Origin: J061 sp003695725 [NCBI: Candidatus Schekmanbacteria bacterium]
GTDB taxonomy: Bacteria > Schekmanbacteria > GWA2-38-11
DNA length: 7,031 bases
NCBI GenBank assembly: GCA_003695725.1
Contig: RFHX01000131.1
Span: 1-7,031, forward strand
Direction of reading: 5' to 3'
Shown piece by piece: positions 916 to 7,031 of the stretch. Below the pieces are notes generated by a model. It had not been told where the DNA came from. It saw nothing but the letters and a program-made list of their open reading frames with translations, and ran no database searches. The position numbers and the translations under genes are program-made. Each line of letters opens with the position of its first letter. The first letter of the stretch is position 1.

Positions 916-2109
916 ATGGTTAGGGCAAGCGAATTAGTAAATAAAGGGAAAAATTTAAAAGATAAGGGCAGTGGTAAAGAGGAAAAAAGGGAAACTGAGA
1001 TTTCTCTTGATGGAGTAAATAACGAATTTCCTACATTTGAAGACAAAAAGATTGAAAAAAATAAAAAAGAGTTGAGAAAGCCAAAATCTCTAAATATAGA
1101 TAAAAATTTTTTTGGAAAAGAATCGGCAGGTGCTGACACATTTGATGATATAGAATTTAAAAGACACAAAGTATCCTACGATGAAGAAAAATCGCTTGTT
1201 GAAACTAATGAAAATGATAAATCAGCGGAAATTTACCGAAATGCTCTTGATGTTTTGAAGGGGTCTTTAAATCTTTTTCTGGAAAAGAATAAGATTGATA
1301 TAGATGGCATAAAAGATGTAGCAGAAAAATTCATTAGGGATATACAAGACCCCAATTCTTCCTTGATTGCCAAAGCCCTTTTTTATCAATCTGCGTCCTT
1401 TAATTTGATACAGCATCAAGTCGATGTAGCTATTTTAAGTTTAAAAGTTGCAATGGCTTTGGGAATTACTGGAGAAAGATTGAGGCAACTTCTGATTGGC
1501 GCAATGATTCATGATATAGGTTTTGCGAAGATTCCTTCAGAAATTATTGATAAGAGGGAAGAACTTACTGAAAATGAGAGGGAAGAGATTAGAAAACATC
1601 CGATTTACAGCAGACAGTTTGTTCTCGATGCATTGGGTTCTGAATATGAATGGCTGGCAACAATAGTTAACCGAGAGCATGAGCGCCTTGATGGAAGCGG
1701 ATATCCAAAGGGATTAAGCGGCGAAAGTATAGGATTGTTGCCAGAAATTGTAGGTATTACAGATATTTATGAAGCCCTTACACACACTCGCCCACAGCGT
1801 GGAAGGATGACGCCTTTCGATGCTGTTAAAATGATCATAAACAGTTATAAGAAGTCTTTTTCAAAAGATGTGATTAAAGCTCTTGTCAGCGAATGGTCAG
1901 CCTTTCCCGTAGGAAGCTATGTCCTTTTAAGCTCAAATAAAGTTGGACGGGTAATTGAGGTCAATCCATTGAGTCCCTTAAAACCAAAAGTGGAAATACT
2001 TTATGATGCGCAGGGGAATAAATTAGAAGAAACTGAAATCGTGGATTTGAACAAAGATACGCTCGTTTATATCGTTGCGCCTGTCTTTTATGAAGACCTT
2101 ATAAGTTAA
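916..2109 (+). CDS. HD-GYP domain protein (cyclic-di-GMP phosphodiesterase family), signature partly altered
   Basis: This 397-residue protein starts at an ATG with AGAGG seven bases upstream (904-908). Residues 1 to about 105 are a charged Lys/Glu/Asp/Asn-rich, probably disordered extension with no receiver domain or membrane helix. Residues about 106-325 form the HD-GYP domain: H167, the HD pair H199-D200 in HDIGF, H228 in RKHP, then EHERLDGSGYPKGLSG (254-269), and D283 in ITDIYEAL. Residues about 327-390 form the small beta-rich C-terminal module (FPVGSYVLL...GRVIEVNP) often seen after this domain. Active HD-GYP proteins cleave c-di-GMP using two or three metal ions. Here the usual HDIGK lysine is F203 and the first histidine of HHE is E254, while GYP and the other metal ligands remain. 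Activity may therefore be reduced, altered or lost, with a c-di-GMP sensing role possible. Its position between an ATPase and export genes suggests post-translational or signalling control of exopolysaccharide output. Confidence 0.88.
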   Translation: MVRASELVNKGKNLKDKGSGKEEKRETEISLDGVNNEFPTFEDKKIEKNKKELRKPKSLNIDKNFFGKESAGADTFDDIEFKRHKVSYDEEKSLVETNENDKSAEIYRNALDVLKGSLNLFLEKNKIDIDGIKDVAEKFIRDIQDPNSSLIAKALFYQSASFNLIQHQVDVAILSLKVAMALGITGERLRQLLIGAMIHDIGFAKIPSEIIDKREELTENEREEIRKHPIYSRQFVLDALGSEYEWLATIVNREHERLDGSGYPKGLSGESIGLLPEIVGITDIYEALTHTRPQRGRMTPFDAVKMIINSYKKSFSKDVIKALVSEWSAFPVGSYVLLSSNKVGRVIEVNPLSPLKPKVEILYDAQGNKLEETEIVDLNKDTLVYIVAPVFYEDLIS

Positions 2110-2123
2110 TGCCTTTGAAATAA

Positions 2124-2154
2124 TTGCATAAATGACGATGTATAATGATATAAT
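2124..2154 (+). promoter_or_regulatory. Candidate extended -10 promoter for the export genes
   Basis: A perfect extended -10 (TG-A-TATAAT, 2146-2154) lies in the 69-base gap before the export lipoprotein gene. A TTGCAT at 2124-2129 could serve as a -35, though the 19-base spacing is long; extended -10 promoters tolerate a poor -35. A second TATAAT at 2141-2146 could pair with TTGAAA at 2115-2120 at 20 bases, which is less good. Transcription would start near 2161, leaving a leader of roughly 20 bases. No terminator hairpin is visible in this gap, so read-through from the upstream pair is also likely. AT-rich DNA yields such matches by chance. Confidence 0.45.
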
Positions 2155-2178
2155 ATAAGTATGTAAATTTACGGATTT

Positions 2179-3273
2179 ATGGCAATGAGAAAAATTTTAA
2201 TATTTCACATTATCCTTTTCTTAATATGTATTCTTTCTGCTTGTAAAAGTGTTGAAGACAATAGAATGCCCCAAAATGAATTATCTCAAGGAATTGAAAC
2301 TTCATCAGTCAATAGTACTACCCTTAATCCTGTTAGGGAAAGTTCAATAGATAAGGGTATAGACTATAATCTAAAACCTTTAACTGAAAGAAAAAATGTT
2401 TATAGAATAGGCATAGGCGACAGTATTTTAGTTTCTGTATGGAAACATCCTGAGCTTGGGACAGATGGAATATCTGCTGCGCGGGGAGGCACAATAGTGG
2501 AGGAAGATGGAAGCATCTTTCTCCCCTTGATAGGACGCGTCAAGGTTGCTTCACTAACTATTGGCGAAGCTCGTGAAAAGTTGGCAAAGGCGTATTCCAA
2601 ATATGTTAAAAATCCTCAGGTTGTGGTTTCTATTCAGAGTTATGAGAGCAAGCGCTTTTATATTCTTGGAGAGATTAGAAATGCAGGCGCTTATACAATT
2701 AAATTTCCAATTTCTCTTCGGCAGGCGCTCTCCTTGGCAGGCGGACTTTTGCCTTTAGCAGACCTTGAAAGGGCATATATTATAAGGAATGGCAGGATAC
2801 TTCCAATCGACTTCGTAAGTTTAGTAGAAAAGGGAGACGACAGATTTGATATTGAAATAATAGATGATGATTTCATTTTCATTCCCAAAAAAGGAGAGGA
2901 GAATGTTTATGTCTTAGGAGAAGTCAAATCTCCGGGGATTGTTAAGATGGTCAATGGAAAGATGAATCTCCTTTCAGCAATTGCGTCACGGGGAGATTTC
3001 ACAATCTTTGCGGTCAAGGACAATGTGAAGATTATTCGTGGCCCTCTCAATAGCCCCAAAGTAATAACGGTAAATCTTGGTAAACTCTCAAATAAAGCAC
3101 AGGAAGGAAATATATCCAATTTTGAACTTAAACCGGGTGATATCGTTTATGTGCCCGATACGGCTATAGGGCGTCTCGATAAAATATTGCAGAAGATTGC
3201 GCCTGTTTTAAGGACTATAAATGAGGGATTGCAGCCATTTTATATTTACGACTTAATAAGAAATACGAGATAG
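2179..3273 (+). CDS. Wza-like outer-membrane polysaccharide export lipoprotein (PES plus two SLBB domains)
   Basis: This 364-residue lipoprotein is predicted to form the outer-membrane channel for the exported polysaccharide. A signal peptide (hydrophobic core about 7-20) ends in the lipobox LSAC with lipidated C22. A polar Ser/Asn/Glu-rich linker (23-72) leads to the polysaccharide export domain (74-153: YRIGIGD, VEEDGSIFLPLIG, NPQVVVSI). Two SLBB repeats follow: about 157-236 (YILGEIRNAGAY) and about 243-326 (VYVLGEVKSPGIV, ending LKPGDIVYVPD). Residues 331-362 form a likely helical tail, comparable to the C-terminal helix that builds the Wza pore in the outer membrane. The in-frame ATG at 2185 (MRKILIF) is an equally good or better start, since the weak GGA at 2173-2175 lies nine bases before it but only three before 2179; either start keeps the signal peptide. 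The kinase gene follows 16 bases after the stop, so the two are probably co-transcribed and act together. Confidence 0.92.
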   Translation: MAMRKILIFHIILFLICILSACKSVEDNRMPQNELSQGIETSSVNSTTLNPVRESSIDKGIDYNLKPLTERKNVYRIGIGDSILVSVWKHPELGTDGISAARGGTIVEEDGSIFLPLIGRVKVASLTIGEAREKLAKAYSKYVKNPQVVVSIQSYESKRFYILGEIRNAGAYTIKFPISLRQALSLAGGLLPLADLERAYIIRNGRILPIDFVSLVEKGDDRFDIEIIDDDFIFIPKKGEENVYVLGEVKSPGIVKMVNGKMNLLSAIASRGDFTIFAVKDNVKIIRGPLNSPKVITVNLGKLSNKAQEGNISNFELKPGDIVYVPDTAIGRLDKILQKIAPVLRTINEGLQPFYIYDLIRNTR

Positions 3274-3289: not shown

Positions 3290-5716
3290 ATGGCACAATA
3301 TGAACTTGATTTGCGCGATTATTGGCGAATTATCAGAAAAAGAAGATTTATAATTATCTCTGTAACACTGCTTGTGGGTTTTCTTACCTTTCTTTTCTCT
3401 CTTATTCAGCGTCCAACTCCACTTTACAAAGCAACAGCAAGCGTTAAAGTTGAAAGGGCAACAAGTTTGACAGGACTTTTGACTGAAGTTGTTTCATGGT
3501 CAACATGGGATGACATTGCGACACAATCCGTAGTTATTACAAGTTATCGCATTATGGAAAAGGTTGCCCAAAGATTAGGATTTGTTCCAAAGAATCTTAA
3601 AACAGAAGAGATAAGAAAGAATCCAAAATATGTTGAAATCATTTCCGAGCTTCAAGACAGTGTGGAAGCAGAGCAGGAAGAAGATACCAATATAATCAAT
3701 ATCTATGCTGAATCGGAAAATCCTGAAGATGCAACATTATTGGCAAATACCGTTGCAGAAGTTTATAAAGAAGAAAACAGAAAAGAAAGAAACGCTCAAG
3801 TTACTGAAGCGCGAAAATTTATTGAATCACAATTGAAAATAGTCGGCAAACAACTGAGAGAATCTGAAGAAAAGCTCAAGAATCTTCAACAAAGAAACGG
3901 CATTATGTCCGAAGATTCTCTTTATTATGACAGTTTGCTTAAAGAAAAGAGTTCGCTTCGTGATGAATACCGCAAAGTTGCAGAAGAGTTGGTTGAAGCA
4001 GAAAAACAATTGGCAATTCTTGAGAAGGGACAGACGATTGATGAGGATTTCGGAAGAATCTACACGCCTGATTATTATTCGCATTTATATGAGTTGAACA
4101 GAGAACTTTTAGACCTCCTGCTAAAAAGGAAAGATTTGAGAGAACAATATAATGATGATTATCCGCCACTGAAAGAATTGGAAGAAAAAATTAGAAGTAT
4201 TGTCAATGAAATGGAACAACAGATTAAAAAGAAAGTTGAGGTTCTCAATTATAAGAAGGAGGATATCCTATCGAGGATAAAAGAGGTCGATAAGGCAATC
4301 TATGAAAAGCCGGAAGATTTACTTTCAATTGCGAGAGCAAGAAATGAAGTGGAAGTCAATAGAGAGTTATTCAGTCAATTGAAGACTAAGTATCAGGAAG
4401 CATTGATAAAGGAAGCGGAAAAGGTTGACGAAGTGACAATTGTGAAGCCTGCATTTGAAGAACCGATAATTACTAATCCATCGAGTATTTCGCAAAAGAC
4501 GGCAGTAGGACTCTTTATAGGACTTCTCCTTGGCTTTGTAATGGCGCTCATAATTGAAACTTTGGATACTTCAATTGGCACAATTGAAGACCTCGAGCAA
4601 TATCTCGATATTCCTGTTACTGGCGTAATTCCTGATGTGGGAAATGAGGAGTTGATAAGTGAAATTCAGCAGTCAGGAGCTGTTCAGGAAAACTTGGATG
4701 CAGAAACGATTGACCTTTATTCCAAACTGATTTCCCACTTTGCCCCTTCTTCCATACTTTCTGAAAGTTACAGGGCAATGCGGACAAATATTCAATTTAT
4801 GCTCCTTGAAAAGAAATACAAAACTATAACGATCACAAGCGCCTCTTTGGGTGAAGGTAAAACTTCTGTTGCTATAAATCTTGGAATTACGCTTGCTCAA
4901 CTTGGTAAAAAAGTGCTCCTAATCGAAGGTGATTTACGGAAACCTCGTCTCCATAAGGTATTTGGTTTAGAGAAGGAACCGGGATTGACAGATATTATAA
5001 TAGGGAACAGCCACTGGAAGAATTCTGTGCGTACAGTTATCGATATGATGTTAGGCAATCTTCAGTTTGAACAACTTTTTCAAACACCGGGACTTGATAA
5101 TCTTTCTATAATTACTTGCGGCCATATTCCTCCAAATCCTTCAGAATTTTTGAATGCTCAGGGGATTGAAGAACTTATTGAAGAGATTAAAGAATATTTT
5201 GATCTAATAATTATTGATGTACCTCCTGTCCTTCCTGTTACAGATGCTGTGATCTTAGGCGCAAAGACGGACGCTGTTTTATTGGTCTATCGTGCAGGCA
5301 AAATTGCCCGTTCCGGATTGAAGCGGGCGAAAAATATTTTATCCAATGTAAAAGCGAATGTCATTGGCATTGTACTCCTTGGGCTTAAACCTGATGTGAA
5401 TCCGGAGTATTTTAAATTTGGATATAAGAGCTATACAGAGGATTCTAACAAACCTCCTGAGAGCAGATTTATAGATACAATCAGCAGATTTTTCTCAAAA
5501 TTGGAATCTTTCTTTACTAAAGAAAATTTGAGAAAATTCATTAGTTCTTTGGACAGCAAACAGTTAACAAAGATTATCATCTCTGCGATTATTGTTCTGC
5601 TGATTGTAATAGGCATATTATGGCAAACAGGTGGATGTAAGAGTGAGAAAAAATTCCAAAATAGATACTCACTGAAAAATACCACAACTGAAAATATTAA
5701 GATGAATATAGAGTAA
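3290..5716 (+). CDS. Wzc-type fused Wzz chain-length regulator and BY-kinase with extra C-terminal membrane helix
   Basis: This 808-residue inner-membrane co-polymerase sets polysaccharide chain length and engages the export channel. AGGGA at 3279-3283 precedes the ATG by six bases. Order: cytoplasmic N-terminus (LRDYWRIIRKRR), TM1 about 20-39, Wzz domain, long periplasmic coiled coils about 160-245 and 265-375, a proline motif (P387, P392, P397), TM2 about 404-423, then the kinase. The kinase has the oligomerisation motif ExxRxxR (E492, R495, R498), Walker A LGEGKT (520-525), Walker A' LLIEGDLRKP (543-552) and Walker B LIIIDVPP (639-646). BY-kinases phosphorylate tyrosines in their own C-terminal tail. 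Here the first Asp of Walker A' is Glu (E546). The tail has only a loose tyrosine group (Y707, Y712, Y715), then about 45 residues, a third hydrophobic helix about 760-778 and a 30-residue polar end containing C783 and Y793. A single fused chain resembles proteobacterial Wzc rather than the split Gram-positive CapA/CapB. The third helix is unusual. Confidence 0.93.
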   Translation: MAQYELDLRDYWRIIRKRRFIIISVTLLVGFLTFLFSLIQRPTPLYKATASVKVERATSLTGLLTEVVSWSTWDDIATQSVVITSYRIMEKVAQRLGFVPKNLKTEEIRKNPKYVEIISELQDSVEAEQEEDTNIINIYAESENPEDATLLANTVAEVYKEENRKERNAQVTEARKFIESQLKIVGKQLRESEEKLKNLQQRNGIMSEDSLYYDSLLKEKSSLRDEYRKVAEELVEAEKQLAILEKGQTIDEDFGRIYTPDYYSHLYELNRELLDLLLKRKDLREQYNDDYPPLKELEEKIRSIVNEMEQQIKKKVEVLNYKKEDILSRIKEVDKAIYEKPEDLLSIARARNEVEVNRELFSQLKTKYQEALIKEAEKVDEVTIVKPAFEEPIITNPSSISQKTAVGLFIGLLLGFVMALIIETLDTSIGTIEDLEQYLDIPVTGVIPDVGNEELISEIQQSGAVQENLDAETIDLYSKLISHFAPSSILSESYRAMRTNIQFMLLEKKYKTITITSASLGEGKTSVAINLGITLAQLGKKVLLIEGDLRKPRLHKVFGLEKEPGLTDIIIGNSHWKNSVRTVIDMMLGNLQFEQLFQTPGLDNLSIITCGHIPPNPSEFLNAQGIEELIEEIKEYFDLIIIDVPPVLPVTDAVILGAKTDAVLLVYRAGKIARSGLKRAKNILSNVKANVIGIVLLGLKPDVNPEYFKFGYKSYTEDSNKPPESRFIDTISRFFSKLESFFTKENLRKFISSLDSKQLTKIIISAIIVLLIVIGILWQTGGCKSEKKFQNRYSLKNTTTENIKMNIE

Positions 5717-5733
5717 CATTCCAAATCTAAACT

Positions 5734-7031
5734 ATGAACCGCTTGTTAAGTGGAAACAATATATATATACCCCTGTTCTTTTTATTTGCAGCAATCGTAT
5801 CTCTTGTAATAGTTTTTCTTCCTGCCAATCAATCCCTTTTTATAGGCGCCGCCTTTTTTATTATTATTGTTTCTTTTATAAGCAATGAAATTGCTCTCTA
5901 CTTTGTAATTTTCTCAATGCTTCTTTCTCCGGAAATCACTATAACAACTCTTGGATCAGGGGATATTGAACTTGGCAGAACTGTAGTTATAAGATTCGAG
6001 GATATTTTGCTTCTACTTTTAGGTCTTTCATGGTTTACGAAAACAGCAATCTACAAGGAAATTGGCTTGATTGCCAAAACACCATTGAATAAGCCAATTT
6101 TTTACTACATTGGCGTTTGTGTCTTATCGACTATCTTTGGTATTTTTAGGAATGATGTTTCTGTAATGTCAGGCTTCTTTTATGTCCTTAAATATTTTGA
6201 ATATTATGTCATCTACTTCATAGTTGTAAACAATATCGATAATTTGAAAGATATAAAAAAGATACTTTATGCTGTATTTTCAACTTGTATAATCATTTGC
6301 ATATATGGGCTTTATCAAATTCCGGCAGGCAAGCGTGTTTCTGCTCCATTTGAAGGTGAAACAGGCGAACCAAATACACTTGGCGGCTATCTTCTGATAC
6401 TCTTCTTTATTTCTGCAGGAATTTTTCTTTTTTCAAAGAGGTGGAAAGAGAAGGGAATTACATTGTTTTTAATGGGGATTATTTTTCTTCCCTTTGTATA
6501 TACACTATCAAGAAGCTCATATCTTGCATTTATTCCTGCATCATGCATTATTCTCTATTATGTAAGAAAAAGAATTGCTGTTGTAGCAACAGCGCTTCTT
6601 ATAATTATACTTATGCCTTTTTTCCTGCCAAAACCTGCTTATGAAAGAGTTGAATATACATTTAAACAGCCTCCCCAAGCAAAACAGCTCAAAATAGCAG
6701 GGATGAGAATTGATACATCTACTTCTGAAAGAATAAATGCATGGCTTGAAAGTGGAAAGGATTTTATAAAACATCCTTTTTTTGGCTACGGAATTACCGG
6801 CTACAAGTTTCGTGATGCACAATATGTGAGAATACTTATGGAAACAGGAATCATTGGGCTAATTGCTTTCATCTATCTCTTATACAGTCTTTACAAAGAA
6901 TCGTTGAGGATTCTTCCCAAACTATCTCTATGTTGGTGTAAAGGGCTGATTATCGGCTATATTGCCGTAATTACTGCACTTGCCACACACAGTATAGGTG
7001 CAAATACTTTCATAATTATCAGAATAATGGA
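5734..7031 (+). CDS. O-antigen ligase/polymerase-like membrane protein (Wzy_C type), 3' end outside window
   Basis: The frame from the ATG at 5734 stays open for 432 codons to the window edge, so the C-terminus is missing. The start lies 17 bases after the kinase stop. An in-frame TAA at 5728-5730 excludes an earlier start, and no clear ribosome binding site is seen, which suggests translational coupling. The protein is very hydrophobic, with about 11-13 membrane segments. Landmarks of the O-antigen ligase/polymerase family include EPNTLGGYL (212-220), TLSRSSYLAF (257-266, R260), and a large loop about 299-365 with TSERINAW (330-337, R333) and KHPFFGYGITGY (346-357, H347), followed by METGIIGL (369-376) and a further membrane segment. 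Family members join or polymerise undecaprenyl-diphosphate-linked glycans at the periplasmic face, using conserved Arg and His residues in this loop. Adjacent Wzc and Wza genes favour a polymerase role for exopolysaccharide, but ligase and polymerase cannot be told apart from sequence alone. Confidence 0.88.
   Translation, partial: MNRLLSGNNIYIPLFFLFAAIVSLVIVFLPANQSLFIGAAFFIIIVSFISNEIALYFVIFSMLLSPEITITTLGSGDIELGRTVVIRFEDILLLLLGLSWFTKTAIYKEIGLIAKTPLNKPIFYYIGVCVLSTIFGIFRNDVSVMSGFFYVLKYFEYYVIYFIVVNNIDNLKDIKKILYAVFSTCIIICIYGLYQIPAGKRVSAPFEGETGEPNTLGGYLLILFFISAGIFLFSKRWKEKGITLFLMGIIFLPFVYTLSRSSYLAFIPASCIILYYVRKRIAVVATALLIIILMPFFLPKPAYERVEYTFKQPPQAKQLKIAGMRIDTSTSERINAWLESGKDFIKHPFFGYGITGYKFRDAQYVRILMETGIIGLIAFIYLLYSLYKESLRILPKLSLCWCKGLIIGYIAVITALATHSIGANTFIIIRIM

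What the first reader, a model, noticed from the sequence alone, without database searches (positions are those of the whole stretch)
5390..5713. BY-kinase carries a third membrane helix and a possible periplasmic tail
Wzc-type kinases usually end soon after the kinase domain in a dense tyrosine cluster in the cytoplasm. Here residues about 760-778 (ISAIIVLLIVIGIL core) form a clear hydrophobic helix after a roughly 45-residue linker, followed by about 30 polar residues with C783 and Y793. With TM1 and TM2 placing the kinase in the cytoplasm, this helix would put the last 30 residues in the periplasm, out of reach of the kinase. Only Y707, Y712 and Y715 would remain as a sparse cytoplasmic tyrosine group. 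A tethered tail could change how phosphorylation controls octamer assembly or let the tail touch the export lipoprotein.
Basis: partly seen in the sequence, partly recalled or inferred. Interest (0 to 1): 0.6.

Follow-up and report, generated by a model that had tools for sequence, protein, structure and literature searches.

The report
Wzc-like kinase with third membrane helix
The enzyme that steers sugar-polymer export in this bacterium very probably crosses the membrane a third time near its end, and many distant relatives use that extra crossing to hold a SPOR-like, possibly cell-wall-binding domain outside, which makes them resemble receptor kinases.

Summary
ORF 3290-5716 (808 aa) is a Wzc/PCP-2a tyrosine autokinase. 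Residues 759-777 are its most hydrophobic 19-residue segment by Kyte-Doolittle, on a par with TM1 and TM2. It is no assembly artefact: the same-family genome G001 has a 64%-identical orthologue with the same helix. In 76 informative homologues the trait is bimodal: 39 have a third helix (TM3) and 37 end without it. TM3 often ends in W-Q (21 of 39, window included), a pair almost absent elsewhere in these proteins. A separate genus has RodZ_C at that place. Both domains are extracytoplasmic in known proteins, which supports the proposed topology. The window's protein, its sister and a Brocadiales-like group have TM3 with little beyond it. The window's C-terminal 31 residues are poorly conserved, so the helix rather than the tail is probably the working part. 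Best reading: a three-TM variant of PCP-2a whose kinase is tethered to the membrane at both ends and which in many relatives carries an envelope-facing domain. Ten searches of the held papers found no description of it. Function is inferred.

The parts
3290..5716 (+). Wzc-type (PCP-2a) BY-kinase ORF, 808 aa plus stop
   Evidence: Pfam Wzz, AAA_31 and CbiA above cut-off, GNVR just below; NCBIfam TIGR01007 above cut-off; best PDB matches Wzc
3350..3406 (+). TM1, residues 21-39
   Evidence: hydropathy; helix 19-39 in model
4499..4555 (+). TM2, residues 404-422
   Evidence: hydropathy; helix 400-425 in model
4838..4864 (+). Walker A stretch, residues 517-525, with K524
   Evidence: E522, G523 and K524 invariant in A2; motif name from general knowledge
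4916..4939 (+). Walker A' stretch LLIEGDLR, residues 543-550 (first Asp replaced by Glu)
   Evidence: sequence; R550 invariant and D548 at least 90% conserved
5204..5218 (+). Walker B stretch ending in D643, residues 639-643
   Evidence: D643 invariant
5408..5434 (+). Remaining cytoplasmic tyrosine group Y707, Y712, Y715
   Evidence: Y712 and Y715 invariant or nearly invariant
5438..5563 (+). Cytoplasmic linker, residues 717-758, modelled mainly as two helices
   Evidence: helices 724-741 and 744-753 in model, low to moderate confidence; 12 of 42 residues identical to the sister protein
5564..5620 (+). TM3, residues 759-777
   Evidence: corresponding helix in L005 and 37 further homologues
5621..5626 (+). 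W778-Q779 at the outer end of TM3
   Evidence: WQ at this place in 21 of 39 TM3 proteins
5627..5713 (+). Short presumed periplasmic tail, residues 780-808, no known domain
   Evidence: no Pfam match for residues 701-808 at E <= 1; residues 778-808: 6 of 28 aligned positions identical to the sister
2179..3273 (+). Wza-like polysaccharide export protein, upstream partner gene
   Evidence: Poly_export and SLBB; relative within 3 kb upstream in 34 of 38 TM3 loci
5734..7029 (+). Wzy_C / O-antigen ligase-like polymerase gene, cut by the contig end
   Evidence: relative within 3 kb downstream in 22 of 38 TM3 loci

Best explanation
This is a polysaccharide co-polymerase tyrosine kinase (PCP-2a, Wzc-like) of a three-helix variety. 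After the kinase domain and its conserved tyrosines (Y712, Y715), a linker of about 45 residues leads to TM3, which returns the chain to the periplasm. Shown by computation: the helix, its recurrence in a sister genus and many phyla, and SPOR or RodZ_C domains after it in relatives. Inferred: the kinase is tethered to the membrane at both ends. The tyrosine segment can still reach a neighbour's active site as in E. coli Wzc, but the chain end is not free, and TM3 may pack near the TM1/TM2 pairs of its own or the neighbouring subunit, which leave portals open to the lipid in the solved octamer. In relatives with a SPOR-like tail, TM3 would also fasten the Wzc-Wzy-Wza machine to, or let it respond to, peptidoglycan or another periplasmic glycan. 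In the window's family no such domain is present, only the anchor.
For: Hydropathy, shuffles and model. Sister orthologue with TM3. Bimodal split, 39 with and 37 without TM3 of 76 informative rows; insertion sums 1.18 or less against 5.25 or more, three rows without TM3 being too short to score. WQ at the TM3 end in 21 of 39 against about 0.0015 expected per segment, in both bare-tailed and SPOR-tailed members. SPOR in 19 of 20 tails scanned, 16 over the curated cut-off. A tail under the cut-off (L060) folds as tandem alpha/beta domains and matches the SPOR structures of CwlC (prob 1.00, TM 0.69 by target) and RlpA (0.99, 0.69). RodZ_C after a third hydrophobic segment in L029. Context wza-wzc-wzy. 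Wzc architecture and tail mechanism: PMC8285477 and PMC11986026, abstracts and passages seen.
Against: No experiment. The outer flank of TM3 in the window is basic (5 K/R after, 4 before), and of relatives with tails of 20 aa or more only 15 of 26 have more K/R before TM3 than after, so the positive-inside rule gives little help. TM3 shares fewer letters with the sister (6 of 19) than TM1 (9 of 19) or TM2 (12 of 19). The WQ motif was noticed after the fact, and its 21 carriers are not independent (many are one Brocadiales-like group). The window has no SPOR domain. The glutamine called highly conserved in SPOR domains (Q270 of RlpA) was seen in only 2 of 19 tails (L056, L065; read by eye, several offsets unsure), so glycan binding is doubtful for many. 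No Foldseek hit for L060 reached E <= 0.001, and the top-ranked hits were not SPOR. The two same-order genomes searched (G002, G003) gave only kinases without TM3 among the loci I read (L018, L020).
Confidence: 0.78

Rival explanations
1. TM3 is real but a passive relic: an ancestor carried a SPOR ectodomain, the domain was lost in the window's lineage and the Brocadiales-like group, and the leftover anchor has no function. (It shares the topology with the best explanation, so the confidences overlap.)
For: Tail and TM3 letters are poorly conserved between window and L005 (6 of 28 and 6 of 19). L062 ends just where TM3 begins in its near relatives L044 and L050, so TM3 seems dispensable there.
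Against: Bare-tailed members in the Brocadiales-like group and the window family keep a strong helix with a WQ end over long branches; a useless helix should decay. The tree cannot tell gain from loss, so an ancestral SPOR domain is not shown.
Confidence: 0.25
2. The segment is not membrane-spanning but a buried or re-entrant hydrophobic helix, so the tail stays in the cytoplasm.
For: Model confidence there is only moderate (block pLDDT 68-74); basic residues on the outer side.
Against: A 19-residue segment as hydrophobic as TM1 and TM2; SPOR and RodZ_C domains, extracytoplasmic in known proteins (general knowledge), follow it in relatives.
Confidence: 0.07
3. The extension is a frameshift, fusion or assembly error.
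For: The window is a short contig of a 374-contig assembly.
Against: An orthologue in another genome, on a 300-kb contig, has the same architecture; 34 of 71 informative loci have TM3.
Confidence: 0.01
4. It is a C-terminal sorting signal, as in exosortase systems, that is cut off, since the neighbours resemble XrtA-system genes.
For: Neighbours hit TIGR03015 and related models below cut-off; helix near the C-terminus.
Against: Such signals have the protein body outside and a basic end inside (general knowledge); here the kinase must be inside. Relatives carry folded domains after the helix.
Confidence: 0.02

Closest known systems
E. coli Wzc (PCP-2a; PDB 7nhr and others)
   Same: Wzz/GNVR periplasmic part, TM1 and TM2, BY-kinase with Walker motifs, tyrosines after the kinase, wza-like gene next door
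   Different: Wzc has two TM helices and ends in a free tyrosine-rich tail (PMC11986026, abstract and passages; PMC12004946 passages say the same of PCP-2 proteins); here a linker and TM3 follow the tyrosines
SPOR-domain proteins (FtsN, DamX, DedD, RlpA)
   Same: Relatives of the window protein carry a SPOR-like domain beyond a TM helix
   Different: Known ones are division or lytic proteins, not kinases (general knowledge); the window's own protein has no SPOR domain
PASTA serine/threonine kinases (PknB, StkP; recalled)
   Same: Cytoplasmic kinase, TM helix, cell-wall-binding ectodomain: how SPOR-tailed relatives might work
   Different: Unrelated kinase fold and ectodomain; single TM; no polysaccharide co-polymerase part
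YabT of B. subtilis (abstract beginnings in the listing)
   Same: Kinase anchored by a C-terminal TM helix
   Different: Hanks-type kinase, unrelated; no periplasmic polymerase part

Membership tests
PCP-2a / Wzc BY-kinase | Wzz and GNVR periplasmic modules between TM1 and TM2 | tested here: met
   Wzz 37.6 bits over cut-off 25.5; GNVR 26.6, just under 27.7 in the window but 38.6 in the sister L005; 40 of 40 A2 rows match GNVR at E <= 0.01
PCP-2a / Wzc BY-kinase | Cytoplasmic BY-kinase domain with Walker A, A' and B residues | tested here: met
   TIGR01007 179.4 over 108.05; K524, R550 and D643 invariant, D548 nearly so; first Asp of A' is Glu
PCP-2a / Wzc BY-kinase | Tyrosine-rich C-terminal tail | tested here: inconclusive
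   Only three tyrosines after the kinase and before TM3, Y707, Y712 and Y715, the last two conserved; followed by TM3 instead of a free end
PCP-2a / Wzc BY-kinase | Exactly two TM helices | tested here: not met
   Third segment 759-777 as hydrophobic as TM1 and TM2; hence filed as a variant
PCP-2a / Wzc BY-kinase | Octamer formation and tyrosine autophosphorylation | not testable with these tools
   needs protein
SPOR-domain proteins | PF05036 domain | tested here: not met
   Window residues 701-808: no Pfam match at E <= 1. Met in relatives: 19 of 20 tails scanned, 16 over cut-off
SPOR-domain proteins | Binding of denuded glycan (RlpA Q270 and basic patch) | tested here: inconclusive
   Glutamine at the Q270 place seen in 2 of 19 relatives' tails by eye; basic patch not tested; window has no such domain

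The most novel reading that the evidence does not exclude
Three-TM Wzc proteins are bacterial receptor-like tyrosine kinases: an ectodomain (SPOR-like, or RodZ_C in one genus) beyond TM3 reads the state of peptidoglycan or the nascent polymer, and through the tethered tyrosine segment changes octamer cycling and so polysaccharide length or place of export. The bare-tailed members, such as the window's, keep TM3 because it became a structural part of the octamer or of the Wzy contact.
Probability: 0.3. Interest if true: 0.82.

Novelty: new variant of a known kind. Interest (0 to 1): 0.62.

Why it matters
The Wzc papers I saw describe PCP-2a kinases with two TM helices and a free tyrosine tail whose phosphorylation takes the octamer apart. 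A broad set of relatives in which the chain after that tail is re-anchored in the membrane, often with a SPOR-like domain outside, bears on two questions. One is what, if anything, Wzc cycling senses; I know of no established sensor. The other is how surface polysaccharide export is placed relative to the cell wall and septum. Both become testable by deleting TM3 or the ectodomain.

Tried and rejected
Frameshift or assembly error: rejected by the G001 orthologue. Sorting signal: rejected on topology. A SPOR relic after the window's stop codon: no frame search was made; 17 bases separate the stop from the next ATG, so there is no room. A lipobox at C783 was considered: the residues before the cysteine (TGG in the window, FKG in L005) do not fit the usual motif (recalled), so I dropped it; L008 has LGSC after TM3 but its near relative L083 has not. 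Positive-inside counts: uninformative.

Paper searches (10, all used). 'SPOR domain' with 'tyrosine kinase' and 'Wzc': 0 papers. With 'polysaccharide copolymerase': 0. With 'denuded' and 'tyrosine kinase': 0. 'BY-kinase' with 'peptidoglycan-binding': 0. 'Wzc' with 'SPOR domain': 1, where the terms occur apart (passages). 'Tyrosine autokinase' with 'third transmembrane': 1, on a phosphatase by its listing, not read. 'SPOR domain' with 'peptidoglycan', 'exopolysaccharide' and 'fused': 2, listing only. 'BY-kinase', 'transmembrane', 'C-terminal' and 'SPOR': 24 papers, 15 listed, the last term apparently matching mostly spore words; of these only passages of PMC12004946 were seen. (Wzc, octamer): 8 papers, passages of two seen. 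(SPOR domains): 7 papers, passages of PMC6895207 seen. No paper was read whole. The 2009 PCP/OPX review that I tried to open (DOI recalled) is not held, so it could mention such variants. Whole-model TM-scores to Wzc are low (about 0.30 by query), probably because the domain arrangement of a monomer model is unsure (pTM 0.49); I use that search for fold assignment only.

Rows dropped: of 85 extracted homologues I left out 2 duplicates (L081, L110) and 7 without a readable C-terminus (L047, L057, L077, L080, L089, L091, L097), leaving 76. L079 (sum 5.25) is counted as without TM3. The tree has 77 rows, counts L047 and L079 as without TM3 and gives 8 changes; one search leaves those two uncounted and gives 7 changes over 75 rows. 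In one search the 44 loci called 'no' include the 7 rows without a readable C-terminus. Linker tyrosine counts are unreliable where the alignment ran past the linker (for example L036-L039, L049, L065) and are not used. Tails scanned alone: 20 (19 of the 20 that are 116 aa or longer, plus L006 with 63); L073, cut by its contig end, and L072 (86 aa) were not.

Full report
What is there. The window is a whole 7,031-base contig (C131) of a 2.77-Mb, 374-contig assembly. All on the + strand, it carries an XrtA-type ATPase relative (108-899), an HD domain protein (916-2109), a Wza-like export protein (2179-3273), the kinase (3290-5716) and a Wzy/ligase-like gene cut by the contig end (5734-7029). 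The kinase matches Wzz, AAA_31 and CbiA above Pfam's cut-offs and TIGR01007 above NCBIfam's. Its best solved relatives by sequence and fold are Wzc structures.

The helix. Residues 759-777 have the highest 19-residue Kyte-Doolittle mean of the whole protein (2.93, against 2.65 and 2.64 for TM1 and TM2). Their insertion sum (-2.7) is near those of TM1 (-3.27) and TM2 (-2.95), and the lowest among the other listed segments is +6.88 (scale values recalled). Shuffling residues 716-808 gave as good a window in 3 of 20,000. AlphaFold2, from an alignment of the window with 35 of the 80 loci, predicts one helix at 756-779 with block pLDDT 68-74, two helices in the linker, and very low confidence at 781-794.

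Not an artefact. G001, the only same-family genome among the 60 relatives searched, has a 64%-identical orthologue with the same order of parts, a TM3 of mostly different letters but the same character, and matching neighbours. The window genome's own second Wzc-like kinase, on contig C298, ends in a normal tyrosine cluster with no TM3, so the genome holds both kinds. The two same-order genomes searched, G002 and G003 (G003 70% complete), gave kinases without TM3 in the loci read (L018, L020). Of the 33 loci, two of which (L003, L004) are not BY-kinases by my reading, six have a third hydrophobic segment after the kinase: L001, L005, L006, L007, L008 and, weaker, L029.

How widespread. A scan of one genome per species with an alignment of five relatives found 109 relatives and kept the best 80 loci. 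With five loci from whole-genome searches, and after dropping 2 duplicates and 7 rows without a readable C-terminus, 76 rows are informative: 39 with TM3 and 37 without. Nothing lies between insertion sums of 1.18 and 13.6 except L079 at 5.25; three rows without TM3 (L053, L070, L092) have too little left after the kinase to score. By record title the TM3 rows include Planctomycetota and Brocadiales names (Brocadiaceae, Scalindua, Anammoxibacter; that the untitled Planctomycetota rows belong with them is my reading of the tree), Nitrospirae, Neomarinimicrobiota, Latescibacterota, Rokubacteria, Tectomicrobia, Gemmatimonadetes and Desulfobacterales. Of the 37 rows without TM3, 17 bear Omnitrophota or Omnitrophica names and 5 Mariprofundaceae. 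They include L034, the best match (46% identity), where the next gene starts directly after the stop. On a quick tree TM3 presence needs at least 8 changes over 77 rows, or 7 over 75 with L047 and L079 uncounted. The tree does not say which were gains, and many deep branches are weakly supported. The sample was chosen by likeness to the window and is not a survey of all BY-kinases.

A motif. In 21 of 39 TM3 proteins, the window included, the outer end of TM3 carries W-Q. Only 2 other WQ pairs occur in 35,875 residues of these proteins, about 0.0015 expected per segment. I noticed the motif after seeing the sequences and its carriers are related, so 21 is not a count of independent events. It is found in bare- or short-tailed members (window, L005, the Brocadiales-like group, L044, L050) and in SPOR-tailed ones (L035, L043, L065, L082, L090), which suggests that their TM3 is one inherited feature rather than many inventions (inference). 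The Neomarinimicrobiota rows lack it.

What lies beyond TM3 in relatives. Tails are 14 aa or less in 13 of 39, 25-86 aa in 6 (two of them, L063 and L069, cut by the contig end) and 116 aa or longer in 20. I scanned 20 tails against Pfam: 19 match SPOR at E <= 0.0084, 16 of them over the curated cut-off (below it: L046, L060, L067). The exception is the proline/alanine-rich tail of L006. In a whole-protein scan 16 of 40 members matched SPOR at E <= 0.01. The tail of L060 folds into tandem alpha/beta domains with block pLDDT of 81-97. It matches the SPOR domains of CwlC (1x60, rank 12) and of RlpA with denuded glycan (6i09, rank 50) at probabilities 1.00 and 0.99 but E-values of 0.017 and 0.089; longer, poorly superposed matches rank higher. 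A distant kinase, L029, has RodZ_C (E 4.6e-13) after a weaker third hydrophobic segment (sum 1.59), and in its two congeners searched (G060, G061) a match covers its full length at 90% and 75% identity. Both domain kinds are extracytoplasmic in known proteins (general knowledge), so they act as natural topology reporters for TM3.

Limits. The glutamine that contacts glycan in RlpA's SPOR domain (Q270, called highly conserved in PMC6895207, passages seen) appears in only 2 of 19 tails by eye (L056, L065), and several offsets are unsure. Many of these domains may bind something else, such as the exported polymer, or only hold a partner in place. The window's own tail has no Pfam domain and little conservation (6 of 28), so no receptor role is claimed for it. 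The window's genome does have SPOR domains elsewhere (two matches on other contigs).

Mechanism. In E. coli Wzc the tyrosine tail of one subunit lies in the active site of the next; [quoted passage not shown] In the three-TM form the conserved tyrosines (Y712, Y715) precede a linker that may be long enough to let them reach a neighbour, but the chain end is fixed in the membrane. I infer that TM3 holds the kinase near the membrane after octamer break-up and may pack at those portals or against Wzy. In SPOR-tailed relatives it would also join the export machine to the wall. TM3, its recurrence and the domains are computed results; every statement on function is inference.

Neighbourhood. A Wza relative lies within 3 kb upstream on the same strand in 34 of 38 TM3 loci and 22 of 44 others; a Wzy relative lies within 3 kb downstream in 22 of 38 and 33 of 44. 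Many loci are cut short, so these are lower bounds, and the 44 include 7 loci whose C-terminus is unread.

Known or new. Ten searches of the held papers gave no listing or passage that describes a Wzc kinase with a third TM helix or a SPOR domain (passages). Most subscription papers are not held, and the 2009 review of the family could not be opened. I rate it a new variant of a known kind.

Noticed in passing
L029 (G018:C1), and G060, G061: A BY-kinase with a weaker third hydrophobic segment and a RodZ_C domain at its C-terminus; matches in two congeneric genomes cover its full length at 90% and 75% identity.
   Followed up: partly
L008 / L081, around the Walker A' motif: The SPOR-tailed kinase of this lineage reads LLMGCNMRRP where the others have LLIEGDLR or LLIDCDLR-like letters; it may be a pseudokinase.
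   Followed up: no
L062, end of ORF 5983-8256: Ends right where TM3 begins in its close relatives L044 and L050; looks like a recent loss of TM3.
   Followed up: partly
window 916-2109: HD domain protein with an HD-GYP-like HERLDGSGYP stretch sits between the ATPase and the wza-like gene; a relative lies within 3 kb upstream of the kinase in 6 of 38 TM3 and 3 of 44 other loci. May hint at c-di-GMP control.
   Followed up: no
L117 (G000:C298) 994-3093: Second Wzc-like kinase of the same genome, 28% identical, ends in a dense tyrosine cluster without TM3.
   Followed up: partly
L060, L066, L067, L071, L074, L076, L078 tails: Neomarinimicrobiota kinases seem to carry tandem SPOR-like domains (shown by a model for L060 only), several ending in IVLR/IVIR-like residues.
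   Followed up: partly
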